A DNA stretch of 64,000 bases from Prillingera fragicola (taxonomy: Eukaryota > Basidiomycota > Tremellomycetes > Trichosporonales > Trichosporonaceae): the NCBI GenBank assembly GCA_002335605.1, contig BEDY01000013.1, positions 310,001 to 374,000 of the forward strand, read 5' to 3'. Below the pieces are notes generated by a model. The model was not told the DNA's origin, made no database searches, and saw nothing but the letters and a program-made list of their open reading frames with translations. This document shows, piece after piece, positions 5,959 through 54,557 of the stretch (position 1 is the stretch's first letter; every line of letters starts with the position of its first letter). The translations under genes and the position numbers were made by a program.

Positions 5959-7337
5959 GGAGTGGAGGGGGATGAGACTATGGATAGACTTTTGGCACTG
6001 GATTTGATCATGCATGCTGTATACCACTAGCACCAATCATTAGCCAGCCCGAACATGAAACGCACTGCCGGCGGATTTCTCAAGAGTGAACGGGCCAGGG
6101 ATCAACCGCAGCAGCGTTGGCTTCAGCCCTGCCAAGACCTCCACACGACTGTACAGGTTTGTATGAGGCATTTAGAGTTACCCGCCGCACAAGTTGGATG
6201 TGGGCGTGGGATCCTTGAGACCTGTCGCGTCAGTGGCTTCAGGAGAGGACAATGGCGCCAGCGCGCACATCAGTTGTACCCAAGTACCCAAGCCACGGGC
6301 CACGGGGAACAGGGTGGTCAGAGAGCTGCCCAAACGCACTCACCGCGAACGCAGCGCTGGCAACGTTGACCAAATTGGGAGCGCGTGTAAGTGCGGGTCG
6401 CGCCGCTGCGCCTGAGTGCTCCCAGAGACGCCAGGGGGGAGATCCCAAACCTTGCACTACCGGGAGGCCATCCCCTCAATGATGGAACCGGGCTCGGGGG
6501 ATCCAGGCCTGTGGCCTGTGGCTCGTCGGCGTAATGATCGTGGACGACCAAGAAGGTAAGGTTGACCCTCGGGGAATGTGAGATTACTGCGCGGATCGAG
6601 GGCTGGCGCCACGAGGATTCCGCACATCGCGGATATGCCCTAGATTGTAAGAAATGGATCGTCATCGCTCAGCGGGCTCTGACTGTCCACAGTCGTGCGT
6701 GCTTGGGAATGGTGAGTGTGTACTGCCTGTGAATGGGAGTCTCTATGCATGCAGCAGTCTATACAGTGAGTGACAGGTGTGCATGGGAGTGAGCGCGTCG
6801 CGTGCGGTACGGACAAATTACTGGGACGTGGACAAAGTGTGCATGTGGCGGCGATTTTAGCGAGGAATGAGGTCATTGGTGTCGGGAGTGGCACAATGAG
6901 GTCATGTCTTGATACAACGGGTGGTAGAGACTGGATGAGATGTGGGCATCATCCGGTGGTCTGTCGCGCGTGGAGTCTGTGACGACTGGCCGACAGACTA
7001 GGTGGCTACAGGTGGCACAACGCAGGGGACGGGTCGACAGGTGCGGCGGCTCTGCGACAAATGACATCAGGGGTGGTTGCGAGCCGCCGTCACATGCTGC
7101 TGCGGCCGCCGTCGTGAAGCGTTCGAGGCGTGGGTGACCCGCCAAGGGAATGCACTCTGCTGAACAAAGGCCTCGATGTACCCGCGGCAAGGTCGTGGGA
7201 GGCCAGGCTTGGCCTGTCGATGGCACTATGTTGTCGACACATATAAGTGAGCTCGTCAGATCCACCTCTCTGTCTCTTCCAACCTCCCTCAACTTTACCT
7301 ACTACACCCAAACTACCTACCTCACCAACAAACCAAC
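5959..7337. other. Intergenic region, nop7 to metallothionein-like gene
   Basis: About 1.4 kb with no supported gene. Frames on both strands are short and mutually overlapping, with no family signature. The right end carries the TATA-bearing promoter of the Cys-rich gene. I looked for an obvious copper-response element of the kind known in Cryptococcus and did not see a clear copy. Confidence 0.5.
7241..7247 (+). promoter_or_regulatory. TATA box of the metallothionein-like gene
   Basis: ATATAAG lies 97 bp upstream of the ATG at 7338. A CT-rich leader with repeated CTACC and CCAAC units follows and runs into an ACCAACATGG start. This looks like the promoter of a strongly inducible gene. Confidence 0.6.
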
Positions 7338-9327: not shown

Positions 9328-9409
9328 CGACTGAAGTGAGGTTCGAACTCACGCGTGCAGAGCACACTACCTTAGCAAGGTAGCACCTTAACCACTCGGT
9401 CATCCAGCC
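9328..9409 (-). tRNA. tRNA-Ser (anticodon GCT)
   Basis: The minus strand folds as a class II tRNA. The acceptor is GGCTGGA paired with TTCAGTC (two G-U pairs). The D arm is followed by an anticodon stem CTACC/GGTAG with loop TTGCTAA, giving anticodon GCT for AGC/AGT codons. A long variable arm follows (typical of tRNA-Ser), then T stem GTGAG/CTCAC with loop TTCGAAC, and discriminator G. It has no intron. Length is 82 nt without CCA. Confidence 0.93.
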
Positions 9410-9749: not shown

Positions 9750-9844
9750 CTACCCCACACGGGCTCGAACCGTGGACCTCGGAGTTGTTTGTAATCTAGT
9801 GATTTATAACAGCTCCACGCGCTAGCCAACTGAGCCATAGGGTA
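9750..9844 (-). tRNA. tRNA-Asn (anticodon GTT) with an intron
   Basis: The minus strand gives acceptor TACCCTA/TGGGGTA (one G-U pair) with discriminator G, D arm GCTC/GCGC, T stem CACGG/CCGTG and loop TTCGAGC. The anticodon stem TGGAG/CTCCG starts with loop bases CTGTTA, so the anticodon is GTT. About 21 nt then intervene before the 3' half of the stem, placing an intron after position 37 as is normal for eukaryotic tRNAs. The D and anticodon arms (TTGGCTAGCGCGT...GCTGTTA) match eukaryotic tRNA-Asn. Odd points are one mismatched pair in the D stem and a U-A first acceptor pair. tRNA-Ile(TAT) was considered because the letters TTATAA occur, but the stem fixes the loop at GTT. Confidence 0.8.
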
Positions 9845-23096: not shown

Positions 23097-26000
23097 ATGG
23101 CCCCTCTAATCGCCATAGCCCCCAGGCCACCAGAGCTACGCCCCCCGCCCAGCGCATCGGCAGGACCCTCGTCTACACCACTCATCACTCCCGGCGCAGC
23201 TGGCGTACCCGGCGCGGCGGGCGCGGCCGGCGCAATGTCGCCTGAACGTAAACGGGGACGGAAGCGGTATAGCTGTGCAGAGTGTCGGAGGTGAGTGTCG
23301 CTTTGTGGTCGCCCGCGGATTGTGTCGATGTTGTTGCTTGACGGCAAGGAAGCACGTGTTGGTGTGGAGCGGCAACGCGGCGTACGGCGTGTTGCGGCTT
23401 GTTCCTCGTTGCCACCCACTGTGCTGTGCTCTGGGGCGTCGTCTTGGGTGATACCTATCATGTCGAGGCCGAGGCGTCGCTATCGCGACCGAAAATGGCG
23501 AGCATGGGGGTCCGAGCACGGACCTCGAGCGCCACAGTCGGCGCCGAGACCCACGTACGCCGCTGCTCCTTCCTTTTCCGTCCGTTCTTGATCTTCCTTC
23601 TTGTCTTTTCTACAGAGTCTAGGACACGTGCGCCAGTCATTCCGAGCATCCCATTTCTTATCGCACACATTGACGCGGCACAGGCTCAAGCTGAAATGCT
23701 CCAAATCGTGGCCTTGCACCATGTGCGAACGGCGCGGGTGTGCGTCTCTGTGTCCCGAGGGCGAGAAGGAGCGCGAGCGGAAGCGGTGAGTCGGCCTTTA
23801 GACTGCTTATCGGCGACGTCGATGCACTGGAGAGGAGCTGACATCCAGACCTGGACCTGTGGGCGAGACAGAAGAAGCAACAAAGGAACAGGTATGACTC
23901 CCCTTTGAGATGTCGCTGACGCCAGCTCCAATACCGCATTGCCGTCCTCGAAGCTGCCCTGCATGAAGGCGGAGAACGCTCCAAGATCCGCCGCCCAAGC
24001 CACTCTCAGCACCCCCAACCCATGCAAGGACGGGATCGCAACGGCTCGCTGTCGCACCCCCTGGCGCACACGCCTCACGCGTCGCACAGGGGGTTTCCAG
24101 AAAAGCTCTTACAGCCGCGCGAACCTCATCGCGAGCACCGGAACGGAGACCACCGAAATACAGATCATCGCAACGGCGGCCACCCCAATGGTGACCGCAG
24201 ACACGAACACCCCGACCCCCGCCACACGTCCGCTGACTCGGCGTCGTCGGAAGAGCGCGTCGTGGACTCGGCCCCGGGCTCCCTTGTCATTGGCAGGGGC
24301 GGCGAGGCGCGATACGTAGGCAGTCTAGCGGGGAGCGCCTACCTGCGCGAGCCCGAGCGGCGCGGATCGACGAGCCCCACGACGACGTCAAACGGCCATG
24401 CTCACCACGCGCCACACGCCGTGCGCACGCAGGGGGCCAACTCGCCAGTCAACCTGGTTATCAACGGCGAGCACTCGCACCCGTTGTCGTCCCCACTTTC
24501 GCCTCTGTTTTCGTCGCCGTCGGCGCATGCTCCCAGTGCTTTGAATGGCAGGCGGGGCACGCCGGGCGCGCCAGGCGATCCGACGATATTGAGGCTGAGA
24601 GCCCGGCTGCCCGACTGGGAGGAGGAAGGGCGGGGCATGGTTGAGAGCTACTGGGATCACGTCAACTGGATGTAAGTGCCCCTGCTGGGGTGAGCGAAGA
24701 GGAGTGCTGACGTTTGAAGCCACCAATTGATTCCCCGCTCAACGTTCGAGACAGAGTACCTCCCGTCCGCATACTCCGACACGCCACACCCACACCGGCT
24801 TGCGTGCGTGTTTCTTGCCATGGCACTTGGTGTGCTCTTTGACATTGCCCGGCCGCCCTGTGAGTACCTTGTTTGCACGCCGTCTTGCTGACTTGCAGTC
24901 CACCCTCGGGGCAAAGAGCTATTCCTCCTCGGCCGCGAGTGCATTGAGGCAACTCGGAGAGAGAAGGCCGGCACGGCTACTGTGCAGGCTCTGACTATGC
25001 TGGGAACCTTTATCCTCAACGACAATGGTGAGTTGCTGGAGACACCGAGTGCTGACGCTGCAGACAGCAACGGCTCCGAGATCTACTGGCCCATCCTCGG
25101 CGACGCCGTCAAGACAGCCCTTAGCGTCGGCCTGCACCGCGATGGCGAGGCCTTTGGCCTCCCACCCCGTGTCGTCGAAGAACGCCGCAAGGCCCACTGG
25201 GAGCTGATGGAGTATGACCGCACCCAGGCGCTGAGCTTTGGCCGTCCATGCGGCCTGAGCAATCGCCACGCCGACACCCAGTTTCCGGCCTCGGACGGGA
25301 CCCTCTTCCAGGACGCGTCAGGGTACCACCACGCCAAGCACCGGCTCGTGCACATGATGGAGCGGGTTGTGGACATCCAAGTCCAGCCGACGCCTGTGCC
25401 GTACTCTGCCGTTGTGCGACTGGACGCCGAGCTGCAAGAGTTCCGCAAGAGTCTCCCAGAGTCGCTCATGTGCAGCGTCGCTATACAGGATCTTCCGCTC
25501 GACACGACGCAGCACCCCCATCTTGTTCTGCAACGCTTTGGCATCCGTCTCTTTGTCGCCGAAGCGCGTCTGCACCTCAACCGTGCGGCGCTCGTGCACG
25601 CCCTCCGATCGCACCCCCACGCGCCATCCCATGGTCCCTTTTCAGCGGCCTTTGTCGCCGCCTACGAGAGTGCCCAGGAGATTGTTCAAGTCGTGAAACA
25701 GCTGGTCCTCTACTCTCCCGCTCTGGCCGAACGCTGGTGGTTTTTCTGGTTCCACGTCTTCTCTGCTGCCGTCTGCCTAGCCGCCATCAGCATCCAGGCC
25801 CCGCGCTGCGGCTTTGCCACGCCCGCACTCAGCGGCCTAGGCATAGTGTGCGACCTGTCGGCGGCGGCGCGCGACGGGTGTCGCGTCAAGGACGGTCTCG
25901 GCACGCTCCTGGCGCTTCGTGCACGTGCTCGTGATCGGCTGGCCGAGGCCGCCCGCGAGCCCAAGGCCGGCAGCGAGGGCAGCGACGACGGCCGCCCCCG

Positions 26001-26319
26001 CAGCAGCAGCGACGGGGACGCCATGCTCCACCGCCTCCTGCTTGCTGAGCGGCCCCGCCGGGCGTCAGGCGAGGAACGGCCCGGGTCCGCTGGGTCTGGC
26101 GCGGGGTCTGGCGCCGGGTCCGCGCCTGCTTCAGCTGGGAGCGCCAGTGCGTCCGGGAGTAATGGTGTCGTTGCGCAGAGTCTTATTGGGAGTCTTGGCC
26201 TCGAGGATATTTGGCCCATGGCTGAGGGGGCTGCCGAGGGTGGCGTCGCCGTACCGCCTATGCCGCTTTGGCCTGATGCGGCGAGTGTGTTGATTGATTA
26301 TGGTGTGCACTTGGGTTAG
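23097..26319 (+). CDS. Zn2Cys6 fungal transcription factor, 869 aa
   Basis: Nuclear DNA-binding regulator; target genes unknown. Exons 23097-23290, 23684-23785, 23849-23891, 23926-24671, 24720-24859, 24899-25027 and 25064-26319 close in phase. The zinc cluster is C60-x2-C63-x6-C70-x5-C76-x2-C79-x8-C88, preceded by a basic RKRGRKR segment. A short linker follows, then a leucine-zipper-like coiled coil (LQYRIAVLEAALHEGG). A long His/Pro/Ser-rich linker (about 140-340) leads to the fungal-specific TF domain (PF04082-like; YWPILGDAVKTALSVGLHRDG, RRKAHWELMEYDRTQALSFGRP). The C-terminal end is Gly/Ser/Ala-rich. The first intron (393 nt) splits the zinc cluster and is unusually long for this window. 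The neighbouring sugar transporter is a conceivable target but nothing in the sequence shows it. Confidence 0.9.
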
Positions 26320-26449: not shown

Positions 26450-27951
26450 CTAGCCGACAATGGCCATGGCGACCGGAATCGCAACGCCGACTGCGGCCGA
26501 TGCGACCTGCACGCGCAGAGCACGAGATCCCGAGCCACTAGGCTTGACACTCTGAGCCACGGGCTGCGCACCGCTGATGCCATCAGGCCTCAAGCTCGCG
26601 GTAGGACCGTTCGCTGCCCCCCTCGTCGCAGCGGCGGTAGCTGTGCTCGCGATGGAGGTGCCAGCCGCCCTCGCCGCAGCGACTTTACTGTCCAGATCCG
26701 CGGCAAGGGGGGCAAAAGCGACGGCGCCAGTCTCGTAGTCGTAGGCGACGTAAACGTTGCGCAGCGCGGGAACACCCAGGACAGCCTGGGCGTCGTTTGA
26801 GCAGACAATGCTGGAGCTGCACATTGACGGAGCGTCTTGGATCCCGCGCGCGATAATGTCCTCGGGCTGGAGGGTGATGGGGACGTCGGCCATGGTGAAC
26901 GTGACCGACGTGTTCGTGTCGCATGGCATGCGCCAGTAGGTCGTCCCCGCGGCCTGTTCCGCGCCGGGGATGGCGGCGTGGACCGCCGCGCAGGCTGGCG
27001 CGGGTAGCTCCATGGCAGTGTAGCCAACGTGGAAGGTTGTAAGCATGGAGCCCGAGACCTGGGTGCCGCCTACTTGGATCGAGACGACTGTGGCCCCAAA
27101 GTAGGACGATGAGGTGGGCTGCCACTTGATGTCACCCGTGTACAGGTCGGGGTTTGTGCCGCTGCGCGCGTTAGTTGGTGGGTTTGCGTGACCGGGCAGC
27201 TTACCCGAACGTGAACACGCCGGCGTTGGGCTTGAGCGTGTCGTAGGGAACGACACGGTCAGCCTTTGGCGTCGAGTCCCGGCCCATGTACATGCCGAGG
27301 TATGGCGTTGGCCAGGATGTCTTAAAGGTGTTGTAAATGTTGAGGCCGTAAGGAGGTGCGAACTCGAGATTGATCGCCCCCGAGAGTTCTTCGGGGAGGT
27401 TGGAGCTGTAGTTGCCGCTCTCCTCGATACTGAGGATATAAGGTGCAGAGTAGCCTGCGATGCCGACCACGTCCTGGCCCAGCGTTCCGGTCAACACGCG
27501 TGTGCTGCGGGGGCTGTTGTAGGTGATGGGCTGCATCGGTTTCCAGCTCGAACTCGCCCCGGCGTCAATCTTGTTAGAGCCCATACAGTCTGTACAGGCA
27601 GAGCTCTTGACAAACGTCATGCCCTGCTTCTTGAGCAGCATCGACGCCTTTTGCGCAGGTGTCCTGGTCGCTTTAGCACCGTGCAGTCTGTGGCTGTCCT
27701 CACCCAACGTCCACATCGATCACAAAGCTAACGTCGTAGTCGTCCGCGACGGGTCTGGCGTCAGCGTGTTCAGTAAAAGCTACCTACACAATGTCGCCTG
27801 GGCTGCGCTTTTCAAGCACAGAGTTCGAGCGGCGTGTCGTAAACTGGTGGACCGGTACGTCGATGCCGCGAATCGTGTTGCTGGAGCCACTATCGAGAGG
27901 CGCGGCCGTGGCGCCTGCGGCCAGAAGGAAGAGTGCCGTTTGGACGAGCAT
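26450..27951 (-). CDS. GPI-anchored pepsin-fold pseudoprotease A, 461 aa
   Basis: Secreted protein with the aspartic-protease (family A1) fold but without the catalytic residues. Exons 27788-27951, 27704-27754, 27205-27663 and 26450-27161. It has a signal peptide (about 1-17), a propeptide with the shared RGIDVPV motif, and a Kex2-type LEKR site before the mature part. The opening GTPAQ and the CTDCM cysteine pair follow. Where active enzymes have DTGS there is LKKQG (Asp replaced by Lys). In the second lobe DTG is replaced by HVG. Retained fold landmarks are PTPYLGMYMGR, LYTGDIKW, the PCDT strand and MCSSS before LRNVYVAYDYETGAVAFAPL. A Ser/Ala-rich stalk and hydrophobic C-terminus indicate a GPI signal. 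Exon 3 (459 nt) equals the sum of exons 3 and 4 of paralog C (239+220), so one intron was lost or gained. A proteolytic role is unlikely; binding or cell-wall roles are inference. Confidence 0.85.
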
Positions 27952-28584
27952 GGTGTGAGGAGTTGTTCAGAAAACAGATTGGGGAACAGAATTGCTTTGC
28001 ATGGCCTGTTTGAATATAAGCTCATGTCGCCGCGCGTGTTAGCATAGAAGAATGAGGGGCTCGGAGATGATGCTCAGGCCACCACTCGGCTCCTTCTTTC
28101 TGCCCGACATTGTCTGCGAGCCGCGAGGTCACCGCCACCTGTCACCACAGCCGCGCCGCACTACTGGAAGACATTATCACACACAAGGACGGGACGAAGC
28201 CTGAACGCCAGCAGGAGCAGTTGAAGCTGTGGTTGGAGTAAGGGTGCCACATCCGCCGGATAGTATGTACTCTTGTTCTTTTGTTTCCACCGAAGTCGCC
28301 GAAGTCCCTGGCTGTGTAAGCGCCACCAGTGGCTCTGCTTGCACAGGCGATGCATAGCAGCCCTGATCCTACGTCGATGGCAGCAGCGTGCTCGAGCAGC
28401 AGACATATCCGCGTTGTGACCCTTGCCAGTTTTGCCACTATACCCTGCGTGGTTCATGTTGTGTACGGCACGGTGCCTCGACCCAGAACATTACAGATGT
28501 TCGTCAGATCAATAGCCAGCACTAGCGCTGCCAGCACTAGCGCTGCCCAGTGCACCCCGCACTCTATGCCATACCCCATGTAGT
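27952..28584. other. Promoter of pseudoprotease A and RING-gene 3' flank
   Basis: 633 bp with no gene seen. Nearest the ATG it carries the TATA and leader of pseudoprotease A; the right part is downstream of the RING gene. Confidence 0.4.
28013..28019 (-). promoter_or_regulatory. TATA box of pseudoprotease A
   Basis: CTTATATTC on the minus strand, about 62 bp upstream of the ATG at 27951. Confidence 0.55.
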
Positions 28585-29550
28585 CTATCCCGTATATACC
28601 CTCAACCACCCAGCAACCCCCGCTCGGCACACCAAGCACCTCGCCCCACCCTCGCCGCCCTCGAGCACCACCTTCCCCCCCTCCTCCCTCCGTCGCTTCA
28701 ACCCAGCTCCACTCTCACTCACACCCCCATCACCCACAGGCAGCACATCCCTCCCTCTCAACTCCCCCCCCACGACCCCGAGCTTCGGCGCAACGTATCC
28801 GCCCATACTCAATCTTCGCGCCTTTGCATTCCCGGCCACAGCCCGCGACAGCGCCGCGCCAAAGCCAGCTCGCGGCGACGTGCTAGGCGACACACCCGCT
28901 GCGCGCGGAGGCGCCCACTCGCTGGCAGCTTGCGGCGCGTCGAGGCCCGTCGCCCGTGGAATCTCCATCTCGGCGGAACGGCCGTCGCCCGCTGACGGCC
29001 CGCTGAGTCTCCGAGCGGGCACGGGGAGGGGGTCCGAGTTGGTCTGCGCTTGCTGGTCTTGTTGGAGCTGATCCAAGAGTTGCTGCTGCTGCTGCACCTG
29101 CGCTGCTGCGCCGGCTGGTGCGCCGACGATGGGCGTGCCGGTCGGGCGGGAGCCGTCGCTGCCGCGATGGATGAGGAGGGGTGCACAGAGGTAGCACAGA
29201 TTGAGGTGGCAGCAGGGCAGGAGGACTGCTGATGGTGGGCGGGTGAAGCACAGGAGACAGAGAGGGAGGGGAGTGTCGTAGGCTGCCTTTTCTTGGGGAC
29301 TCTTGACGGCAGCGGTGGCGGTGGCGGGCCCTGGTGCTGGTGCTGGGAGGGCGCGCTGGGCTGGCAAACCGCGGAGTTGGGTCTCTGGTGATGCTGGGGC
29401 CGAGGAGCCTGAGGCCGAGGTGTTGCTGGGTGAGGAGGAGAAGACGGACGACTCGGCGTCAGGACCTGCTGCTGCTGCTGCGGCGGCGCGTGACCTGCGG
29501 ACAGAGTCGAGTTCTAGCCCCAGAGAGGTGAGGGAGAGTGGGCTCGACAT
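28585..29550 (-). CDS. RING-finger protein with a 182-residue insertion, 321 aa
   Basis: Probable E3 ubiquitin ligase, single exon. C98-x2-C101, C113-x-H115, C119 and C122 form the first six ligands of a C3HC4 RING (CLLC..., PCCHLNLCYLC). The final pair C305-x2-C308 sits in CLVCRAGVAGWLRVYTG, which is the usual RING ending of the type CxxCRxxVxxxxRVY. Between C122 and C305 is a 182-residue insertion rich in Gln, Ala, Ser and Pro (a poly-Gln stretch near 160, LSMGGYVAPKLG near 245). No stop or frameshift breaks it, and no clear intron could remove all of it. The upstream frame stays open to 29844, with further in-frame Met codons including one at 29661; MSSPLSL at 29550 was chosen for its context. 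Partner proteins are unknown. Confidence 0.7.
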   Translation of the reverse strand: MSSPLSLTSLGLELDSVRRSRAAAAAAAGPDAESSVFSSSPSNTSASGSSAPASPETQLRGLPAQRALPAPAPGPATATAAVKSPQEKAAYDTPLPLCLLCFTRPPSAVLLPCCHLNLCYLCAPLLIHRGSDGSRPTGTPIVGAPAGAAAQVQQQQQLLDQLQQDQQAQTNSDPLPVPARRLSGPSAGDGRSAEMEIPRATGLDAPQAASEWAPPRAAGVSPSTSPRAGFGAALSRAVAGNAKARRLSMGGYVAPKLGVVGGELRGRDVLPVGDGGVSESGAGLKRRREEGGKVVLEGGEGGARCLVCRAGVAGWLRVYTG

Positions 29551-31103
29551 GATGCGGGATGCAGGAGTGGGAGCTTTGTTTGGAATCAACGTTAAAGCGA
29601 GCTTGACAGATGAAATCAAGCCGACAATGAAGCTTGTTGACGCTGAATGGCCATCCATGGATCCATGGGATTGGGTCAGACGACCCGGTGACTTGCTACT
29701 GCCGATCGGATGCCAATCCGGGGCCAATTGCCGATCTGGAGCCCCGGACCTTCGGAGGCATTTGGCTCCGTGTTTGAGACATGCTGGTGGTGGCGCCGAG
29801 ATGAGCAGTGGTGGCGAACAACAGTAGGGGATCTGTCGCGCCAATGGCCCAGAACCAGAACAGAAAGATCTGAATTCTCGGACCTACTGACTGCCCACGC
29901 TGCAAAATTGTGGGCCGAAGCTCCTTGCTCCTTGTGTCCGGGTGTGTCTCCTTCACATGTGTACGTAACCAACACCACTGTTTTGTACAGCGTACTCTAC
30001 CAAGCCCAGTCACGCACACTGCGTGTGCCACACATTGATAACGACTGTGACCCACTAGTTACCGAGAAGAGAGCACGACGTTGGGGTTGGGGATGCTCAC
30101 GTTTGGGAAGGGGAACGTGCTACAGGACAGGCCCCGGGCTGTGAAACCCTTCGAAGCCAAAGGAACTGGTGGGCGGTGGAAGACACTTGAAAGATGGGGG
30201 TCAGAAGGTACAAGGACAGGTTCAGAGTAGTCTAATGGGCCCCACAGTGTTCTGGCCGTTGAGGCGGTCCTGCGGCGCATACCATGTGGTCAGTGGCCAT
30301 TCATTAGTTTGTTTCTGATCTCTGATCTCTGATCTGTAGACATGAGACATGAGACTGGCCACAGCATCCCACCGGCCTCCGGCATTGGCTCGGGGCAGTG
30401 CTGTTGGCGCCCAGTTGCAGAGGTATGTAAAGTCAAACTCAAAGACACAAGTTACGAGCTTCGAGGTTGCGCGGGGAGGCGACACAAGGTCCCTAGGGTC
30501 GTCATATTCGGGTGCCTAGAAGGCTTCGCAATGTCGAGCAGCGTCGGATGTTGCGTGCCGCATCTTGGGCACCGACATACCGTGACCACCTAGGCAACCC
30601 AACCGATCCAGCCCCCGGGATCCCAGGAACGTGCAGCGTGGACGTCATAATCCAATGTCCTCGTGAGTGTTGAGAAGGACTCTCGCCAGCTGAGCCAAGC
30701 GCGGGCAGTGTCTCGTAGTGCTGTGTCAGTACCGACCCGGCAAGAGCCATGTCCTGCCAGCAAATGAGCAACGTCGCTGCTGTTTGAGGCTGAATATCCG
30801 CGGCCTTGGCATGCATGACCGCAATTACTTGGGCCAGCCAGTGAGTAGCTGCATGGACCTCGTGCCGGTGGTCATCGCTTCGCATCGACACGAACACTGC
30901 CGCTTGAGCGTCGGCACAGCCACAACATTGATCTTGTCTTTGTCCAGAGTCTTTTATATCGTGTTCAGCAACCAAGGACACACGGCGTGCGTTGGCTTCA
31001 GCAAGCACACGGCCCCACTCTCTTTGCCTTTATCCACTCTCTCAAGCGTTTCTTGACCGTCAAACATCTCACCACAGCTCAGCACAGCCTGCCTGCGCAC
31101 GCA
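29551..31103. promoter_or_regulatory. Divergent intergenic region, RING gene and pseudoprotease B
   Basis: 1.55 kb holding both promoters, with no gene supported. A TCTGATC heptamer repeats three times at 30314-30334. A TATA element (TTTATATC, 30953-30960) lies about 145 bp before the pseudoprotease B start. Frames such as 30502-31008 (minus) lack motifs and splice structure. Confidence 0.45.
30314..30334. repeat. Three tandem TCTGATC heptamers
   Basis: Exact 7-bp unit repeated three times. The complementary GATCAGA unit occurs twice in the Rab6/SPF30 promoter region (16161-16174). Confidence 0.6.
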
Positions 31104-32981
31104 ATGACGGGCCTCACTGCCCTCCTGCTGGCGCTCCTGCCCTCAGCGGTATTCGCTGCCCCCGCCCCCAACCCGGTGCCAGAGCCCGGCACCGGTGTGG
31201 CGCACATGGTGCTCCCTCGCGGCAACATGGATGTGTCGCTCACCAGTGTACACACTTGGCGTGATGGCAGCCATCTGGGCAAGCGTGCCGCTGGTGATGG
31301 CCAGTGAGTTACGTTGTTGAATGTTGAGGCTGACCCATCAAGGCTGGATTCGGTATTCTGGGACATGCACTATGCCTTGACATTGAGCATGGGGTGAGTT
31401 CTGCCTGTGGTCTAGGGATGCTGGTGTGGTCCTTGCACTGTAAATGCAGCGCTGCACCCGAGGTAGCTAGCACCGCTGGCCATCGAACGTCGTTCACGAG
31501 TCGAGTTGCCTCGAGTGCCCATGGGCCGCTTGCGTCTCACCCTCGACGAGGACGAGACTCCGGCCTGCACCTTCAGCTTGCACCTCGCATCCCTAGACAC
31601 ACACACGGTCGCATCCTGCAACGCAGCCGAGCTGACCTTTAGCACGCCTGCCCAAGACATTCCTCTGCGCATCGTAACAAGTGGAGGGTCTGTCATAGTT
31701 GCGACGTCCAACTGCTCAGATTGCACCGAGGTGCGAAGCACGGAAAGATTCAGCGTCAATAGCTCGTCTTCTTGGGCACCCACCATGTCCCTCGACGCCG
31801 TGCTTGGTACTGCGTCGGTCAAAGGTGTCTATGGCAAGGAACAGTTGTCCCTGGGGGGATATCCCCTCAACTACGAGATTTGTGAGTTTGAACAACCGGC
31901 AAGACAAAAGGCCCAATGTCGTTGTTTTGGACACCCCACCTGACATTGCTTCCAGTCGCACTTGATGGTGGTAACATGAGTCAGCAATTCTTCCCCGGCA
32001 CTGGTGGTGAGCTTGGCCTGGGCTTGGCAAAGACTGGCGATGGTCTCTCGCAAGCTTATGGCATCGGTGGTCCATGGCCTGCTCCGTACTTTGGTGTCTA
32101 CCTAGGTCGCCATGACACGACCCCCGCGTCCAACAATGCCGACACTATCATGACTCCCAACACTGGCAAGATTACGCTTGGGTGAGTATCGCTTGCATAT
32201 CACGCCAACCTGACACTTGCGCAGCGGAACCGACCCGGGCCTATACACTGGCAGCATTAACTTCGTACCTTCGCAACCGAACACTTTTGCCATTACGCTT
32301 GACCAGCTCAAGATTGGCAGCCAGGTTATTGTTGGTCGCACGGAGAATGTCACAGTCAACACTGGTTCAGGATACATGGGTGCGCCGCCAGGTATTCTGA
32401 GCCGCATCATGGGTAACATCCCGGGCTCGAGCCAGATGACTACCGGCGCAACGGCCGGGCAGTATCGCATCCCTTGTGACGTCTCGGTCGAGCTCGTCTT
32501 TACCATTGGCGGCCAGGATATTAAAATAATGCCCGCCGACCTCCGGACGTGGTTTGACCCAGCAGAGCCCAACATGTGCTTTGCCAACTTTTACACCACC
32601 CCTAACATTGTTCTCGGCGTTCCCTTCTTGCACAACGTCTACACAGTCTTCCAGGTGTCCCCGGCCCAGGTCGGCTTTGCTCCCCTCGCCGCCAACCTGC
32701 AGTTCACCAACGGCAGCGCGACCGCCACGGTAACCACGGGCCCCCCTGTCGGCACCGGTGGAGCCTCGGGCGGAAACGCCAATACGGGCGACACCGGCGG
32801 CGTCGGAGGCGGAGGCGGTGGTAGCGTGAGTGGCGGCGGCGGTATCTCGGGGGGTGACGGCGGCCTGAACCCTGGCACCACGCCTTCGCCTTCGCCGACT
32901 CCAAGCGGCGCCAGGCGTGTGGGTGCATCGACTGTGCTCGCCGCTGTCTTTGGCGTTGTGGCCGTCGTGATCCTGCTCTAG
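31104..32981 (+). CDS. GPI-anchored pepsin-fold pseudoprotease B, 490 aa
   Basis: Exons 31104-31303, 31343-31393, 31643-31881, 31956-32181 and 32225-32981 close in phase. It has a signal peptide (about 1-18) ending AVFAAP, a propeptide with LPRGNMDVSL, and a Kex2-type GKR before the mature part. After GTPAQ the first catalytic box reads IVTSGGSVIV: the Asp of DTGS is replaced. In the second lobe DTG has become NTG (TVNTGSGYMGAP), a D-to-N change known to abolish activity in pepsin-like enzymes. The fold markers NCSDC, PAPYFGVYLGR, LYTGSINF, IPCDVS and MCFANF followed by LGVPFLHNVYTVF and VGFAPL are kept. A Gly-rich stalk of about 50 residues (GG-repeats) and a hydrophobic end (VLAAVFGVVAVVILL) indicate a GPI-anchored wall protein. 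The second intron (249 nt) is long; a reading frame runs through it, but the acceptor CTGACCTTTAG before the GTPAQ codons matches the paralogs. Confidence 0.85.
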
Positions 32982-33451
32982 ACGAGGAGTGTCTTCCCTA
33001 TAGTGTTTTGCTCCAGAGAAATATTAGTCGTATCTATGTTCAGACGCAGGTTTATCGATGTTTATGCAGTCTTAAAAGCAGCAAAGAAGTGTCCCAGTAC
33101 TGTACAGTACTGCAGATCACAGTTGCAATAGTATCACTGGAGACTTCCATTCCGTGTCCATATGAAGCCCAGCCCAGCAGCTTCCCCTGTACTTGGACGC
33201 ATGCAAGAGAACCGAAATCGCCTAATGCACCTCCCAGTATCTTCGCTGAACACCGGTTGATCTCATGCAAGCAAGCATCAAGGAGTTGAGGTGAAGATGA
33301 AATAAACAGGGATGCCAAGACTAACCATAACAGCGGGATCTGCATCCGTTTCATTGACGTACCTGATGTCGAGATCCATCAACATGCTCACATCATCCTC
33401 AGTCCTCCTCATTACCTGTAGTCTACTTCTGAAGGCTCACACAGGGCAGTC
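32982..33451. other. Spacer between pseudoproteases B and C
   Basis: 470 bp. No gene is seen. It holds the 3' flank of B and the promoter of C, without a clear TATA box. A GTACTGTACAGTAC palindromic stretch lies near 33097-33112. Confidence 0.45.
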
Positions 33452-34882
33452 ATGAACACACTCCGGGTCCTGGTCATTGCGCTGAGTGCGAGCATAGCTC
33501 TCGCGGAGTACTCCAACAGCGCGCCAGAACGCATACTGCCCCGGGGCTTTGACGTCCCGATGAGCAGCAAGTGGGGACATAGAGGTCTGCATAAACGAGC
33601 AACGGGGGATCAGTCGTGAGTCGAGTCAGTCGGGAGACGACGCAGGTGAGGTGGGAGTGGGAGCTAATGGCCAGGATCATCGGACGTGGGTACAGCATGT
33701 ACTACGTCCTCAACATTGACATTGGGTGAGCACCCCAGGTTTTCCCAGTACTGACCGCGAACAGCACCCCGCCGCAAAACGTGCCCGTCGTAGTGTCGAC
33801 GACAGGCAAGAGCCTCTGGGTCCAGGGCCCGCCGTGCAATCCTGCCGACGCAGAGTGCTCTGGTAACCGGCGGTTTGACATGAATGCCAGCTCGACGTGG
33901 GTCGCCGGCACCCACGACGTTGATGCGGATGGCACCGTCGACATGGGGACCACGGGACGAGACAACGTGACGATGGGCGGGTACACGCTCCAGCTTGATG
34001 TTGGTGAGTGTGTTGTGCTTCAAGTTCTGACCGGCATAGGAGTAGTCGAGCCCGTGGGGTTCCCGGACAATGACGCTGGTGGCATCAATCTTGGGCTCGC
34101 AACAGACTACACCACCACGGGCCAGGAGTTTGCCAAAACTTTGTGGCCCTCACCATACATGGGCGTGTGGGCGCCACCCAGTGAGGTATCGCCCGCAGCC
34201 CGAAATGAGACTTATTCCAACCCGAAGATCATGGGTGGCAACGGCAAGATTACATTCGGGTGAGTGTGGGGTACAACGCTTTGGACTGACCGCGCGCAGC
34301 GGAGTAGATGCCAGTCTATTCAGCGGCGACATCAGGTGGATGAAATCCTCGCCTGCGAGCTTCACAGGCTCCATTGACGGCCTCAAAGTCAGTGCTGAAT
34401 CAATCAGTGGACGCGTCGACGGCGTGGTCTTTGACATTGGGAACCCCAGCATCCTGCTGCCCCAAGCCACCGTCGACCAGCTGCACACAGCCGTCAGTGG
34501 CGCGCAGAAACAGACAGACGGAACGTGGCACGTCCCCTGCAACACATCCTTCCAGCTCGTCGTGTCTGTAACAGGCTTTGACGTGACGCTAAACCCCACC
34601 GATCTGCTGTACAGGTATGATCCTCAGCAGCCCACAATGTGCCTCTCCCAGATCTTTGCTGCCACGGACGGTATAGCCAGATTTGGCACGTCGTTTATGC
34701 ACAACGTCTACACCGCGTTCGACTTTCTCACGCCAGCCGTGGGCTTTGCGCCGCTCGTGGCCGGGATTGTAAATGGGACCGCTCCAAGCACGACAGATAA
34801 TAACGGCGGCGGAGTGGTAACGCGTGCCTCCATGTCTGGCTTGCTTCTTGTCACTGCGGCCGTTGCTGCTGTCATTCTGTAG
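33452..34882 (+). CDS. GPI-anchored pepsin-fold pseudoprotease C, 418 aa
   Basis: Exons 33452-33615, 33675-33725, 33765-34003, 34040-34259 and 34300-34882 close in phase. It has a signal peptide (about 1-18), propeptide LPRGFDVPM and a Kex2-type HKR site. The first box is VVVSTTGKSLWV: it keeps the LWV strand of true aspartic proteases, but the Asp is Ser. The second box reads VVFDIGNPSILLP, so this is the one member that keeps the second-lobe aspartate (DIG for DTG). PPC is followed by a second Cys. The other landmarks are PSPYMGVWAPP, LFSGDIRW, VPCNTSF, MCLSQIF and FMHNVYTAFDFLTPAVGFAPL. The stalk is short and the end hydrophobic (LLLVTAAVAAVIL). With only one of two catalytic Asp residues, peptidase activity is not expected. 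It is the least diverged member and the best reference for the family. Confidence 0.86.
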
Positions 34883-35730
34883 GCGAAAGGGTTGACACAT
34901 GTACTACTTGCTACAACCCACGTCCGGCGCAGTGTAGGGTTCCCGGCTCTGCGTTTCATGAGGATTTCAGGTTGGCTGCCCACAGCGATTAGCACTGCAT
35001 GGTGGCGTCTGATAACATGACAAACCCACCAGACGGCAGTGCCCGGTATGCAAATGCTTGTGAACCCACGATATGCTCGTCGTATATCGAACCAAGGCCA
35101 TATACCAAGGACACCTGTGCAGCGTCCCTACGCGTGCTCGGGCACTCGGGCAATGTCATGTCCCACCACCACTTGTGGCCATGACATGCTGTGATACATG
35201 GGAGGCACGGCGTTCCTCGCCCTGACCGCATGCCGAGTACCCAATCTCGGAACGAGCACATGACATGACTGCTGTTGCTCATTGAACCGCAGCTGATATC
35301 ACAAAGTCAAGCCCCGGCATGCGCAGCTTCTATGTCAGTCTCGCTGTTCCCAGACTGTGCGGCGATCGGTGGCCGTTCCGCCCGACACAAGCCGAGCGAG
35401 CGGTCTCGTCGCCATCGCCGCGCTGATGTCAAGCGGGGTTTCATGTTCATGACAAGAACAAAGTCTGACTGCGCCATAAGGCTGTACCTGGGCAGTGTCT
35501 CGCTCCACGGTGGCAGTGGGGATGAGCAGGTGATCATCCGATCTTCGGTGCCAAGACCTTGACTGGCATGGTGCTTGATTTTGTCAGTGCAGTGCGGCCT
35601 GTTGAGTGACACACTTTTCAGTGCACATAAAGAGCATAGAGCGGGATGCTTGGAAGCGATATCAAACTGCCAGAGTAACCTGTCGTAACGTATCCTCCAA
35701 TCATACACACCTCCAAGGCCGCAACCAACA
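34883..35730. other. Spacer between pseudoproteases C and D
   Basis: 848 bp. No gene is supported; the minus-strand frame at 35307-35948 overlaps the D start and lacks motifs. A CACATAAAG element near 35624 may serve as a TATA box for D, about 105 bp upstream of its ATG. Confidence 0.4.
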
Positions 35731-37377
35731 ATGCTCGCACTGCAACTGCTCCTCGCAGCCATTGCAGCTACGGCTGTCGCTGCCCCGCCCGGGCTGAGTG
35801 ACGTCAAGTCCGAAATGATGCCCAGGGGAGTAGATGTGCCGCTCACCCGCCGGCTGGTGCCGCACGCACCAGCTGGAAGAGCAATCCAGAAGCGTGCAGC
35901 TGGGGACAGCGAGTAAGTGCTGGGGGACTTGTTTGCGAAAGCTGACACTCAGACTCCTGGGGTCCATGTACAATCACCAGTATTCTGTAGCCATGTCGGT
36001 TGGGCAAGTATCGCGTTCGTCTTGGATTCTCCAAAGCTGACAGTCGGGGCAGGACACCACCGCAGATGGTGGGGATGCAGCTGCGCAAGTCGTTTTCGGG
36101 CGAGACGGCCATGCAGGCCTACAACTGCACAGAGTGCATGGGCAGTGCAGCGCCGTTCTACACCAACGCCAGCAGTAGCTGGTCGTTTATCGCGCCGGTG
36201 ATCCCGCAAGCTGGGGACGCTGGGGACCCTGAGGGGTTCAGCGGCATCTATGGGTCCGACACGGTTACCCTCGCCGGCTACACGTCGCGTAATGACATTT
36301 GGTATGCAGCTGGCTATGTGCGGTGGGGCTGACCTGCGCCAGTGCTCGAGGACAAGAACGACCTCAACGTCGACGTAGGCATGTCGGGTGGCATATTCCT
36401 CGGGCTCACGAACACGAGCAAGCTGTTTCCGGCCTACGAGTCGAGTGGGAACAGCCTATCAAAGTCGTGGCCGCAACCGTACATGGGCATGTGGCTGGGG
36501 CGACCTACAAGCATGACCCACCCAAGTGAGACAAACCCGTTTATCATGGATATGGAGGGCTATGAGAGAAACGCTGGCAAGATTACCTTTGGGTATGTGT
36601 CGTCTCCGTCGACATCAAACTGACACTCGAAGTGGCACCGACGCAACCCTATACACTGGCGACATTGCGTGGTCCCCGTCTGCGCCAGACGACTTTAGAA
36701 CCACTGTAAACGAAATCAAGGTCAACGGCAAGGTTGTCAGCGGCCAGCTCGATGGTGTCCAGTTTAACCCTGGATGCCTCAACACGGATCTGCGACCCGA
36801 GGCACTCCGGGCCATCAACTCTGCCATCGAGGGGGCATGGGAGGACACTGATCCGCTGTCGGAAACGTATCAGTACTGGCTGATTCCCTGCAACACCACC
36901 GCCCAGGTCGTCGTGTCGGTCGCAGGCATTGACGTCGTGATGAAGGGTGTAGATCTGCTCCTTCCTGGCGCAGCCGGCATGATGAACGGCAGCTACATGT
37001 GCTACTCGTCCATCATCCCAACATTGTCCGACGACGTCAGCTGCTTTGGAACCAATTTCTTACACAACGTCTACACCGTCTACGACTATGCGACCCCGGC
37101 TGTAGGGTTTGCAAAGATCATCGACTATCTGGCCAACAACAACCAGCCCACGGCGCCACCGCCCCCGCCGCCCGAGACCTCGACCAGCCGCACAATTCAG
37201 ACAACTGCGCGGCCGACGGCTAGTTTTGCAGCTATCTCAGCCTCGGCGACGGCAAATCCCTCTACCTCGACAGTGTCCAATGCTAGCAGCAACATGGGCA
37301 GCCACGCAGCGATTTCTGTACCGTTCAAGTTTGGGCTTCTGGTTGGCGGATTGGTTGTGGCCGTGGGTGTGGTTTGA
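35731..37377 (+). CDS. GPI-anchored pepsin-fold pseudoprotease D, 487 aa
   Basis: Exons 35731-35912, 35953-36003, 36053-36288, 36343-36592 and 36633-37377 close in phase. It has a signal peptide (about 1-18), propeptide MPRGVDVPL and a Kex2-type QKR. The intron after exon 2 uses a GC donor (GCAAGT). The first box is MQLRKSFSGETA (Asp replaced by Arg) and the second FNPGCLNTD (Asp replaced by Asn). NCTECM, QPYMGMWLGR, LYTGDIAW, IPCNTTAQVVVSVAG and MCYSSI followed by FLHNVYTVYDYATPAVGFA are retained. A Pro run (PPPPPP) and a Ser/Thr-rich stalk precede the hydrophobic GPI-type end. The exon 3 donor is the least certain: GTAATG keeps phase, while the better-looking GGTATG 13 nt downstream would not. 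Confidence 0.83.
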
Positions 37378-38083: not shown

Positions 38084-39635
38084 ATGGTGCACCCCAACTT
38101 CAAGCTCGCCGACCCCGCGCTCCTCATCTCCAAGGGCTGGATCAACGACGTCGAGGTGGCCGGTCTGGCCGGCCGGGCGCCGACAGAGGTCCACGACCCG
38201 GCGACGGGCGAGGTCTGGCACAAGATTGAGACCATGGACGAGACCGACGCCGATGCGGCCATCAAGGCCGCGTACGAGGCTTTCCCCAAGTTTAGCGCCG
38301 CGAGCGCGCGGCAGCGTGCGCGCTGGATTCTCAAGCTCGACGAGCTGGTGCGCGAGGCAAAGGAGGACTTTGCCCAGTTGCTCGTCATGGAGAGTGGAAA
38401 GGCGCTCGTCGAGGCGCGCGCCGAGGTTGACTATGCTAGTGAGTGCGAGTGGCGGGTGCCGCGCTGACATGCAGCGACATACTCGTGGCTCATGGCTGGT
38501 GAGGCGGAGCGCATCCAGGGCGACACGATCAAGGCCAACGACAACCCGTCGCTTCGCTTCTTCACCCAGCGCGTCGCTGTCGGTCCCGTCGCGCTTCTCT
38601 GCCCGTGAGTGATTGATGTCTGCTGAGCTGACGACAAGGTGGAACTTTCCTCTGGTGATTGCGCTGCGCAAGATTGTCTCGGCGCTGGCTGCTGGCTGCA
38701 CAATGGTCATCAAGCCGTCGCCCGAGACGCCCACGACGACACTTGCTCTCGCTGTTCTGTGCCAGCGCGCCGGCATTCCCGCTGGTGTCGTCAATGTGAT
38801 CACCGCAAGCAACGAGACCACACCCGCGGTCGGCAAAAAGCTGTGCGAGGACAAGCGTATCAAGAAGATTTCATTCACCGGCTCGACCGCCGTCGGCAAG
38901 CTCCTCTACTCGCAGTGTGCCGGCACTCTGAAAAAGATGACGCTTGAGCTCGGCGGCAACGGCGGCTGGGTGGTGTTTGACGATGCCGACCTGGAGCAGG
39001 CTGCCGACGCCCTCATGGCCAACAAGCTCCGCCACGCAGGCCAGGTGTGCGTGTGCGCCAACCGCGTGTTTGTGCAAAAGAACATCATGGACAAGTTTAC
39101 CACGATTGTGCAGGGCCGCATGCAAAAGCTCAAATTCGGCCACGGCCTCGACGACGGCATCACCAACGGACCCCTCACGACGCCGCGGGGCGCGACGCAC
39201 GCCGCCGAGGTCGTCGACGACGCAAAGTCCAAGGGCGCAAAGATCCACATGGGCGGCAAGCCGTGGGGCACCGGGTACGGATTCGAGCCTACGCTCATTA
39301 CGGACGCGCCGCGCGACTCGCTCGCGTACACTGGTGAAATGTTTGCGCCAATCTGCTCGCTTTATTCGTTCGAGACCGAGGACGAGGTCGTGGCGCTGTG
39401 CAACGACACCGACATGGGACTGACAAACTATGTCTGGACAAGGGACATTGCGCGCGCGTGGAGGTGCTATGAGCGTCTCGAGAGTGGCACCGTCGCGCTC
39501 AACACGGCAAACGCCAACACTGCCGAGAGTCCGTTTGGCGGGATCAAGGAGAGTGGCCTCGGCAAGGAGGGAGGTCTTGGTTACGGTGTGCACGAGTTTA
39601 CCGTCATTAAGACGGCGGCTCTGACTGTGGCCTAG
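38084..39635 (+). CDS. Succinate-semialdehyde dehydrogenase-type aldehyde dehydrogenase, 493 aa
   Basis: NAD(P)-dependent oxidation of an aldehyde, probably succinate semialdehyde to succinate in the GABA shunt. Exons 38084-38438, 38475-38604 and 38639-39635. Motifs: PWNFPL substrate and cofactor start, KPSPETP, GIPAGVVNVIT, FTGSTAVGK Rossmann loop, base E265 in LELGGN, nucleophile C299 in AGQVC, and EMFAPICSLYSF, NTANANTAESPFGGIKESGLGKEGG near the end. The pattern SPFGGIKESGLGKEGG and the overall order are typical of SSADH. Odd: the stretch after LELGGN reads GGWVVFDDADL where most SSADHs have APFIVF. There is no clear mitochondrial presequence, so a cytosolic enzyme is likely. The neighbour downstream is a cyclase-family hydrolase, with no evident pathway link. 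Confidence 0.9.
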
Positions 39636-53334: not shown

Positions 53335-54557
53335 ATGGCTCACCAGCGCGGCCACCGCGAGCCCGGAGACCTTGAGGGTGGGTCCCTGCCAAAGCTGTTG
53401 CTAACGCCCAGTCGGAGCGGCGGACATGTTCATCCCCCACGAAAAGCCCCACACGGCGCCGCGTGCGCCTCCCCCGGCCTTTCTGACCAAGTGGGAGACG
53501 CACCGTCCGAAGTGGGCCATGGAGATGCTGGCCGAGACGCTTGGTGTGTTCCTGTATTGCTGGGCTGGCATGGTGAGTCGTGTTACAGTGGCAGTGCTGA
53601 CCGCAGGGTGCCACTGTTGCGTTTTTCGTCGGTGCTGCTGAAAAGGAAGAGGGCTTTGGGAGTATCCTCACCGTCGCCATGTGCTACGGGGCTGGTATCA
53701 TGCTAGCTATTATTCTCGCTGGTCCTACCTCTGGCTCCCATCTCAACCCATGCTTTACTATCGCCTTTGCCATCTTCAAGGGATTCGTGAGTCACCTTGT
53801 GGCACAACCCACTAACCAGCAGCCGTGGCGCAAGGTCCCGCAGTACATTGCTGCCCAGATCTTTGGCGGTCTCCTCGCCGGTCTCATCGTGTATGCCCAA
53901 AACTACACCGCTCTGCACGCCATCACCGAGAAGATTATCGCGTCAGGCGCACCCCCCTCGGCCATCTTCTCGCCCCAAGGCCCCGCAGGCACTATCGGGC
54001 TGTACCTCCTGCCGACGGCCCAGATTGGCATTGTCTTTGTCAACGAGATTGTCTGCTCAGCCATACTCGCCCTAGCCGTGTTCGTCATTCTCGACCCCTC
54101 GAACGTATTCATCGCACCCACGACAGGCCCAGTCCTCATCGGTCTCGCCTACTTTGTCGCCGTGGCAAACTTTGCCGGCAACGGCATCGCCCTCAACACT
54201 GCCCGCGACGTCGGCGCCCGCTTCGCCAGCGCAATCATCTGGGGACGCAAGGGCGCCTTCCCGGCACAGTACTCTGCCCTCGCGGCCCTCACCAACATTG
54301 CCGGCACGCTCGTAGGCGCGTCCATCCAGACATTCTTCCTCTCCGACACTGTCCGTCCGCCGACCCAGGCCGCGCTCGCCGCACACCACGCGACAGAGCA
54401 CGCCAACGAGGCCCACCTCCAGCGCGTCATCACTGCAAAGGAGAATGGAGGATACACCAGCGGCTCGGGCATGTCGCGCATCTTTAGCTCGCGTACAGAC
54501 CAGAAGCTCTCCCCTCATGTCGAGCACAAGGAGCTCCAGACGCCTAGCCCGGTGTAG
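53335..54557 (+). CDS. MIP-family aquaglyceroporin with altered NPA boxes, 372 aa
   Basis: Six-TM channel of the major intrinsic protein family, probably for glycerol and/or water across the plasma membrane. Exons 53335-53377, 53412-53572, 53607-53786 and 53823-54557. MEMLAETLGVFLYCWAGMGATVAFF is TM1 and SGSHLNPCFTIAFAIFKGF is the first half-helix. The second half-helix is GNGIALNTARDVGAR. Both Asn are kept (N115, N253), but the boxes read NPC and NTA instead of NPA. The D after NTAR (D257), typical of glycerol facilitators, is present. The N-terminal tail is His/Pro-rich; the C-terminal tail of about 90 residues is Ser/Lys/His-rich and may be regulatory. The acceptor of exon 4 could be one codon upstream. 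Neighbours give no functional hint. Confidence 0.9.

What the first reader, a model, noticed from the sequence alone, without database searches (positions are those of the whole stretch)
26450..37377. Cluster of four secreted pepsin-fold pseudoproteases
Seen: four paralogs (one minus, three plus) each have a signal peptide, a propeptide with an RGxDVP-like motif, a Kex2-type KR site, the A1 fold landmarks (LYTGDI-W, PC-x-T, HNVY-x2-F, VGFAPL) and a GPI-type end. The first-lobe catalytic Asp is replaced by a different residue in each (Lys, Val/Thr, Ser, Arg). The second-lobe Asp is His, Asn, Asp, Asn. Known: both Asp are required for catalysis in family A1. Inference: the fold was kept under selection for binding or wall structure after catalysis was lost, as in known pseudoenzymes. 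I know of no described system of this kind in these yeasts.
Basis: partly seen in the sequence, partly recalled or inferred. Interest (0 to 1): 0.85.

Follow-up and report, generated by a model that had tools for sequence, protein, structure and literature searches.

The report
Fungal pepsin-fold surface pseudoproteases
This fungus carries a cluster of four probable cell-surface proteins that keep the shape of the digestive enzyme pepsin but lack its cutting residues, and they belong to a much larger family of such disarmed enzymes in the same genome.

Summary
Four spliced genes with open frames (A minus; B, C, D plus; 26450-37377) encode family-A1 (PF00026) proteins with a Kex2-type KR site and a GPI-like tail. 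None has Asp at the first catalytic position; at the second stand His, Asn, Asp, Asn. All share a 51-nt second exon with a fifth member on contig C7.

The new result is scale. My models give 30 A1 genes in this genome: 21 lack one or both catalytic Asp (18 with both lobes modelled, 3 tentative) and 9 keep both. With active-site columns removed, the 18 plus one Asp-intact gene form one side of a branch (88/83); a clade of the 18 alone is not rejected (AU p 0.54). Active-site columns are kept at 19%, other conserved columns at 75%. pN/pS is 0.50-0.77 in 32 pairs. This looks like a maintained pseudoprotease family, not decay.

Its ligand is unknown; I favour binding in a repurposed cleft at the wall. 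Nearest solved relative: active Cryptococcus May1. Analogues: ruminant PAGs, Bla g 2, TAXI. Ten searches of an open-access library listed no fungal counterpart.

The parts
26450..27951 (-). Gene A, 461 aa. Exons 27788-27951, 27704-27754, 27205-27663, 26450-27161
   Evidence: PF00026 7.2e-23
27621..27629 (-). Gene A, first-lobe active-site loop: Lys-Gln-Gly where active enzymes have Asp-Thr-Gly
27023..27031 (-). Gene A, second-lobe active-site loop: His-Val-Gly in place of Asp-Thr/Ser-Gly
26681..27160 (-). Gene A, C-terminal lobe: confident pepsin-type fold
   Evidence: pLDDT 93.8, pTM 0.86; closest solved structure C. neoformans May1 by Foldseek
31104..32981 (+). Gene B, 490 aa. Exons 31104-31303, 31343-31393, 31643-31881, 31956-32181, 32225-32981
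   Evidence: PF00026 1.1e-28
31677..31685 (+). Gene B, first-lobe loop: Thr-Ser-Gly
32358..32366 (+). Gene B, second-lobe loop: Asn-Thr-Gly
33452..34882 (+). Gene C, 418 aa. Exons 33452-33615, 33675-33725, 33765-34003, 34040-34259, 34300-34882
   Evidence: PF00026 1.6e-34
33799..33807 (+). Gene C, first-lobe loop: Thr-Thr-Gly
34433..34441 (+). Gene C, second-lobe loop: Asp-Ile-Gly (this Asp is kept)
35731..37377 (+). Gene D, 487 aa. Exons 35731-35912, 35953-36003, 36053-36288, 36343-36592, 36633-37377. Intron 2 has a GC donor and intron 3 a weak donor
   Evidence: PF00026 3.6e-18
36093..36101 (+). Gene D, first-lobe loop: Phe-Ser-Gly
36766..36774 (+). Gene D, second-lobe loop: Asn-Pro-Gly

Best explanation
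Genes A-D are maintained, secreted, probably GPI-anchored pepsin-fold pseudoproteases. They descend from a May1-like family A1 peptidase and are one subfamily of a family of pseudoproteases in this genome. Shown here: homology to A1, open spliced frames, absence of a full catalytic dyad, selective loss of active-site residues against kept structural residues, and nonsynonymous change below synonymous change. Inferred: they travel to the wall or plasma membrane, Kex2 removes a short pro-region, and the two-lobed cleft, no longer able to hydrolyse, holds a ligand (peptide, wall mannoprotein or glycan) as a binding or recognition protein, with subfamilies reshaping the pocket for different ligands. 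I put non-catalytic and maintained by selection at about 0.85, and the cleft-binding mechanism itself at 0.45.
For: Dyad lost in 4 of 4 window genes and, genome-wide, in 21 of 30 modelled A1 genes, 3 of them tentative. In the 18 well-modelled genes 9 active-site columns are kept at 19% and 31 other conserved columns at 75% (Mann-Whitney p 5.5e-5); for the window four, 10 of 36 against 92 of 124 cells. pN/pS 0.50-0.77 in 32 pairs within subfamilies. A fourfold-larger look-alike subfamily (7 genes) has conserved residues of its own in the pocket: Leu-x-Asp-Pro in the second loop and Ala-Leu-x-Leu before the first are invariant in 7 of 7. Met-to-GTP distance, a proxy for signal plus pro-region: median 62 in 16 pseudoproteases against 113 in 8 Asp-intact paralogues (p 4.3e-4), as expected if no zymogen block is needed. 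The C-lobe of A models with pLDDT 93.8 and matches May1.
Against: No expression, localisation, activity or binding data. No signal-peptide or GPI predictor was run. The N-lobe fragment of A, which holds loop 1, gave only a poor model (pLDDT 55.4), so loop 1 placement rests on sequence alignment. dS is near saturation (infinite in 2 of 32 pairs), so the pN/pS values are crude; they come from NG86-type counts on paralogues. No orthologue was found, so conservation between species is untested. Cleft binding has no direct evidence. The pro-region of Asp-intact L026 (85) is close to that of B (83), and pseudoprotease L011_1 has a long one (118).
Confidence: 0.45

Rival explanations
1. Regulators of active paralogues: the pseudoproteases bind substrates or partners of the Asp-intact May1-like and GPI-type peptidases of the same genome and so shield or present them.
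For: 9 Asp-intact A1 genes coexist in the genome, and the Asp-intact relatives share the fold and landmarks. In C. neoformans May1 acts on wall remodelling through the chitin synthase Chs3 (PMC11237595, abstract and passages).
Against: No co-location: of the 12 loci that hold pseudoproteases none holds an Asp-intact A1 gene in the stretches I modelled. The groove has diverged strongly, so sharing of substrates is not implied.
Confidence: 0.17
2. Structural or adhesive wall proteins: the lobes serve as a stable, glycosylated exterior and the cleft has no role.
For: GPI-like tails with Gly/Ser/Thr-rich linkers; about twice the density of N-glycosylation sequons of Asp-intact relatives (1.89 per 100 aa in 18, against 0.96 in 9 and 0.87 in 9 database proteins).
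Against: Subfamily-specific invariant residues in the loops suggest that the pocket itself is under selection.
Confidence: 0.15
3. Inhibitors or decoys, as plant TAXI proteins are for xylanases: the surface protein captures a hydrolase or inhibitor of a competitor or host.
For: Pepsin-fold proteins with that job exist in plants (recalled). Pfam TAXi_N touches gene C (E 7.2e-6) and fungal A1 enzymes including May1 show that relation (PMC5158083, passages).
Against: The TAXi_N score (26.7 bits) is below the curated cut-off (30). Active A1 enzymes carry the same match, so it says nothing about inhibition.
Confidence: 0.1
4. Atypical but active peptidases working with one Asp or another residue, as the histo-aspartic protease of Plasmodium does.
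For: Across the genome 9 of 21 keep the second-lobe Asp and 3 of 21 the first-lobe Asp. Histo-aspartic protease structures are among the C-lobe matches, as are very many A1 enzymes.
Against: A, B and D keep neither Asp. The DTG motif around the site, the flap Tyr and the flap Gly are mostly gone as well (D 3 of 18, T 5, G 0, S 2; flap Tyr 3 of 18, Gly 2 of 18).
Confidence: 0.07
5. Decaying pseudogenes or neutral drift after loss of function.
For: Fast divergence (31-37% among the four); three further genes (L014, L028a, L028b) have reduced N-lobes and weak models (L028a has no Pfam match at E 0.01).
Against: Open frames with canonical introns in A-D at saturating synonymous divergence, pN/pS below 1 in 32 of 32 pairs, kept disulphide and turn residues.
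Confidence: 0.04

Closest known systems
May1, Cryptococcus neoformans (PDB 6r61, 6r5h, 6r6a)
   Same: Closest solved relative by sequence of the A-D group (7.2e-53) and first by Foldseek for the C-lobe (TM 0.87 by query length); secreted, pro-peptide, A1 fold.
   Different: May1 is an active endopeptidase with both Asp (PMC5158083, passages); A-D lack the dyad, have a shorter N-terminal region and a GPI-like tail.
Ruminant pregnancy-associated glycoproteins (PAGs)
   Same: A large A1 paralogue family in one genome where active and probably inactive members coexist, glycosylated and secreted; at least 22 transcribed genes in cattle, many 'modern' ones with changes in the catalytic centre (PMC2682831, abstract start and passages).
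   Different: Mammalian, placental, not GPI-anchored as far as I know (recalled); an independent lineage of A1.
Bla g 2, German cockroach allergen
TAXI-type xylanase inhibitors of plants
   Same: Pepsin-fold proteins without proteolysis (recalled).
   Different: TAXi_N touched only gene C of 5 scanned and below its cut-off.
Yapsins and other GPI-anchored fungal aspartyl proteases
   Same: GPI-anchored A1 proteins of the fungal wall (PMC4353680 and PMC12387857, search listing).
   Different: Those are active enzymes; A-D lack the dyad.

Membership tests
Family A1 (Pfam PF00026), as homologues | Profile match over the curated cut-off | tested here: met
   4 of 4 window genes, 66.5 to 120.2 bits against 19.9. 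For A and D the best stretch covers mainly the second lobe.
Family A1 (Pfam PF00026), as homologues | Bilobal pepsin fold | tested here: inconclusive
   C-lobe of A: pLDDT 93.8, matches A1 structures. N-lobe fragment of A: pLDDT 55.4, too poor to judge. The whole protein was not folded.
Active A1 peptidase | Asp in the first-lobe DTG loop | tested here: not met
   0 of 4
Active A1 peptidase | Asp in the second-lobe DTG/DSG loop | tested here: not met
   1 of 4: gene C has DIG; A, B and D have His, Asn, Asn
Active A1 peptidase | Flap Tyr with Gly two or three residues on | tested here: not met
   L-INS-i column: Tyr in A only, 1 of 4, without the Gly; the region aligns poorly
Active A1 peptidase | Peptidase activity blocked by pepstatin | not testable with these tools
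   needs purified protein
GPI-anchored surface protein | N-terminal signal peptide and C-terminal GPI signal | tested here: inconclusive
   Both seen by eye in 4 of 4 translations; no predictor was run
TAXI xylanase inhibitors | TAXi_N and TAXi_C profile matches over cut-off | tested here: not met
   TAXi_N 26.7 bits against 30 in gene C, none in the other 4 members of A1; TAXi_C not matched
Pregnancy-associated glycoproteins | Descent within the mammalian A1 lineage | not tested
   No PAG was put into the tree; the nearest solved relatives are fungal

The most novel reading that the evidence does not exclude
About two thirds of the A1 genes of one fungus have become a diversified surface repertoire on a disarmed pepsin scaffold. 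It forms one clade or nearly so, with the catalytic pocket emptied and, in at least one subfamily, rebuilt around new invariant residues (Ala-Leu-x-Leu and Leu-x-Asp-Pro in 7 of 7), so that the cleft now recognises ligands instead of cutting them. It would be a fungal counterpart, evolved independently, of the mammalian PAG family, placed at the cell wall and located preferentially near contig ends.
Probability: 0.35. Interest if true: 0.8.

Novelty: new variant of a known kind. Interest (0 to 1): 0.62.

Why it matters
Pseudoenzymes are usually seen as single outliers beside many active members. Here the inactive members seem to outnumber the active ones within one fungal genome, keep open frames at saturating synonymous divergence and carry subfamily-specific pocket residues. 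If confirmed, automatic counts of aspartic peptidases in such fungi overstate proteolysis, and the wall would hold an unknown class of recognition or structural proteins. It also gives a tractable case for asking how an active site is lost and then rebuilt for binding, since 9 Asp-intact relatives sit in the same genome.

Tried and rejected
Orthologues: three protein searches. With the A-D group, 16 proteins at E 0.001 or better among 7998 scored candidates. I saw the sequences of 15 of these 16 (14, P0014; P0015 not looked at): 14 of 15 keep both Asp, and the exception, P0003, has an extra stretch in loop 1 that looks like a faulty gene model. With the second subfamily, 7 proteins, which I did not inspect for the dyad. 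With gene C alone, region 76-350, none of 1767 candidates. The candidate cap and the word filter favour active enzymes with GTPPQ words, so absence of orthologues is weak evidence; the window's own proteins were not returned either, so this species' proteome seems not to be in the database.

More paralogues: three own-genome protein searches gave no locus beyond those; the tool calls such counts lower bounds.

N-lobe structure: the contiguous exon of A lacks the first strand and modelled poorly. Rejected as evidence either way.

One ancestral loss for all 21: not shown. The fewest changes on the tree are 2 for the full dyad, 4 for the first Asp and 3 for the second (P0003 left out for the first Asp and for the dyad). 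Some members keep only the first Asp and others only the second, so at least two separate losses are needed somewhere in the set even if the 18 are one clade.

Telomeric location: pseudoprotease loci lie nearer to contig ends than Asp-intact ones (11 of 12 loci against 0 of 8 within 250 kb; at most 42% of the genome lies that near). I grouped the genes into loci myself. I did not find telomere repeats in the 70-base tips that I printed, and several contig tips are shared repeats, so I do not call this subtelomeric.

Decaying pseudogenes and single-Asp catalysis: see rivals. Papers: ten searches. No listed title or abstract start describes a fungal A1 pseudoprotease family; most listed papers were not opened, and subscription journals are not held. 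An evolutionary survey of fungal A1 that I recalled is not held. The Aspergillus niger degradome paper reports 91 non-peptidase homologues over all families (PMC7804941, passages), so inactive homologues as such are no news in fungi.
Full report
WHAT IS THERE. The window is a stretch of contig C13 of an unnamed 20.2 Mb, 17-contig genome, fungal by its genes and introns. I built spliced models with a protein-to-genome aligner of my own. Four genes result: A on the minus strand (26450-27951) and B, C, D on the plus strand (31104-32981, 33452-34882, 35731-37377). Each is one open frame from ATG to stop. Exon 2 is 51 nt in all four and in a fifth gene on contig C7, L010_3. All four match PF00026 (1.6e-34 for C; 7.2e-23, 1.1e-28, 3.6e-18 for A, B, D).

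CATALYTIC RESIDUES. Alignments with active relatives put KQG, TSG, TTG and FSG at the first DTG loop and HVG, NTG, DIG and NPG at the second. A, B and D have neither Asp; C has the second only. The exact first-loop replacement depends on the alignment, since D carries two extra residues there, but none of the readings gives Asp or Glu in the four.

SCALE. A search of the whole genome with PF00026 gave 34 exon matches. I fetched the loci and modelled them. They make up 30 genes with the window four. Dyad status by L-INS-i alignment: 9 keep both Asp (L013_1, L013_2, L018, L022 with DVG in the second loop, L023, L024, L025, L026, L027). 21 do not: 9 lack both (A, B, D, L016, L011_1, L017, L014, L028a, L028b), 9 lack the first only (C, L010_3 and seven genes of a second subfamily), 3 lack the second only (L009_1, L020, L011_2). 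Three of the 21 (L014, L028a, L028b) have reduced N-lobes and hand-joined models and count as tentative; L028a has no Pfam match at E 0.01 as a whole. L017 has Glu in one possible register of the first loop (ESG). Some models have weak splice sites away from the loops (L009_2, L020).

HISTORY. A maximum-likelihood tree of 36 rows (27 genes of this genome and 9 of the 23 database proteins), with active-site columns removed, 314 columns kept: A-D and L010_3 form a group with 100/99 support, the seven genes of the second subfamily another with 100/99. The 18 well-modelled pseudoproteases and L022, a long branch, are one side of a branch at 88/83, which is not strong. A tree with the 18 held together is 0.78 log units better than the free one (AU p 0.54). 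So one clade is allowed, not shown. Fewest changes: dyad 2, first Asp 4, second Asp 3, flap Tyr or Phe 6.

SELECTION. Among columns conserved in at least 80% of 18 Asp-intact rows (9 own, 9 database), the 18 pseudoproteases keep 9 active-site columns at 19% and 31 others at 75% (p 5.5e-5; P0003 with its odd loop is among the 18 reference rows). For the window four the counts are 10 of 36 and 92 of 124. Kept in 18 of 18: the GTP-motif Gly and Pro, the Pro and Cys of the C-lobe PC motif, and three further columns (Ser 231 and Gly 419 and 429 of the alignment); lost: G of DTG in 18 of 18 in the first loop. pN/pS is 0.65-0.77 in 10 pairs of the A-D group, 0.50-0.72 in 21 pairs of the second subfamily and 0.66 in the one pair of the third. 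pS is near saturation, so these are rough and on the high side for strong constraint. The distance from Met to the GTP motif is 38-118 (median 62) in 16 pseudoproteases and 85-144 (median 113) in 8 Asp-intact paralogues (p 4.3e-4; L023 and five pseudoproteases not measured). N-glycosylation sequons are about twice as dense (1.89 against 0.96 per 100 aa).

RELATIVES. By sequence profile the A-D group is nearest to May1 of C. neoformans among solved structures (7.2e-53, 168 sequences at E 0.001 or better, 60 shown); for the second subfamily pepsin and May1 tie (5.3e-26 and 6.7e-26). In the large protein database the relatives found were active enzymes: 14 of 15 seen keep both Asp. No relative of gene C's middle part was found among 1767 candidates. 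The best hit is from Vanrija albida (29% identity).

HOW IT MAY WORK. Shown: a kept scaffold without catalysis by the standard mechanism, under constraint. Inferred: surface display through a GPI anchor and ligand binding in the cleft. The second subfamily supports a pocket under new selection, with Leu-x-Asp-Pro and Ala-Leu-x-Leu invariant in 7 of 7. May1 itself acts on wall composition in acid by way of the chitin synthase Chs3 (PMC11237595, abstract and passages), so a wall role for relatives is reasonable, but nothing here tests it.

WHAT IS KNOWN. Pepsin-fold pseudoproteases exist: cattle have at least 22 transcribed PAG genes, many of the modern ones with catalytic-centre changes (PMC2682831, abstract start and passages), and Bla g 2 is an inactive aspartic protease (PMC9541408, search listing). 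A comparison of 33 Trichosporonaceae genomes counts aspartic peptidases by MEROPS class; the passages I saw say nothing of inactive A1 members (PMC7026411, passages). None of my ten paper searches listed a fungal A1 pseudoprotease family. I therefore file this as a new variant of a known kind: the kind is the pepsin-fold pseudoprotease, the variant a GPI-type fungal family that makes up most of a genome's A1 genes.

Noticed in passing
L009-L021, L028 (C15:92-98 kb, C7:43-52 kb and 347 kb, C12:312-320 kb and 401 kb, C9:121 kb and 216-218 kb, C1:197-249 kb, C2:2.56 Mb): 17 further A1 genes without a full catalytic dyad outside the window, three of them tentative, several in clusters of two or three.
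   Followed up: yes
L009 (3 genes), L010 (3 genes): Clusters on C15 and C7 mix members of different subfamilies: C7 holds a sister of the window genes beside two of the second subfamily, C15 two of the second beside one of the third.
   Followed up: partly
C1, C7, C15 starts (L033, L032, L036); C4, C6 starts (L039, L040) and C15 end (L037): Contig tips share the same 70 bases in two sets, so contigs break in repeats; L033 near 2430-2500 reads like a retrotransposon polyprotein by eye.
   Followed up: partly
genome-wide: Pseudoprotease loci lie nearer to contig ends than Asp-intact A1 loci: 11 of 12 against 0 of 8 within 250 kb. Whether these ends are chromosome ends is unknown.
   Followed up: partly
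window 9750-9844 (-) and 9328-9409 (-): ARAGORN reports a tRNA with a four-base anticodon (gtta) near a tRNA-Ser (gct); possibly an intron-containing tRNA read wrongly.
   Followed up: no
window 24892-26319 (+), 28585-29883 (-), 38613-39635 (+): Open frames around the cluster match a fungal transcription factor domain, a RING finger and aldehyde dehydrogenase; the RING-type frame lies between A and B.
   Followed up: no
window 4418-6004 (+), 53679-54554 (+), 58714-59778 (+), 62534-63973 (-): Pescadillo, major intrinsic protein, GFO/IDH/MocA oxidoreductase and HECT ubiquitin ligase matches. Five other long open frames scanned there, or four besides 60084-61910, gave no Pfam match.
   Followed up: no
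P0017 (database protein): A protein with A1 Pfam domains bears the source name 'Tryptophan--tRNA ligase, mitochondrial' from Saitoella coloradoensis: probably a wrong name or a fused gene model.
   Followed up: no
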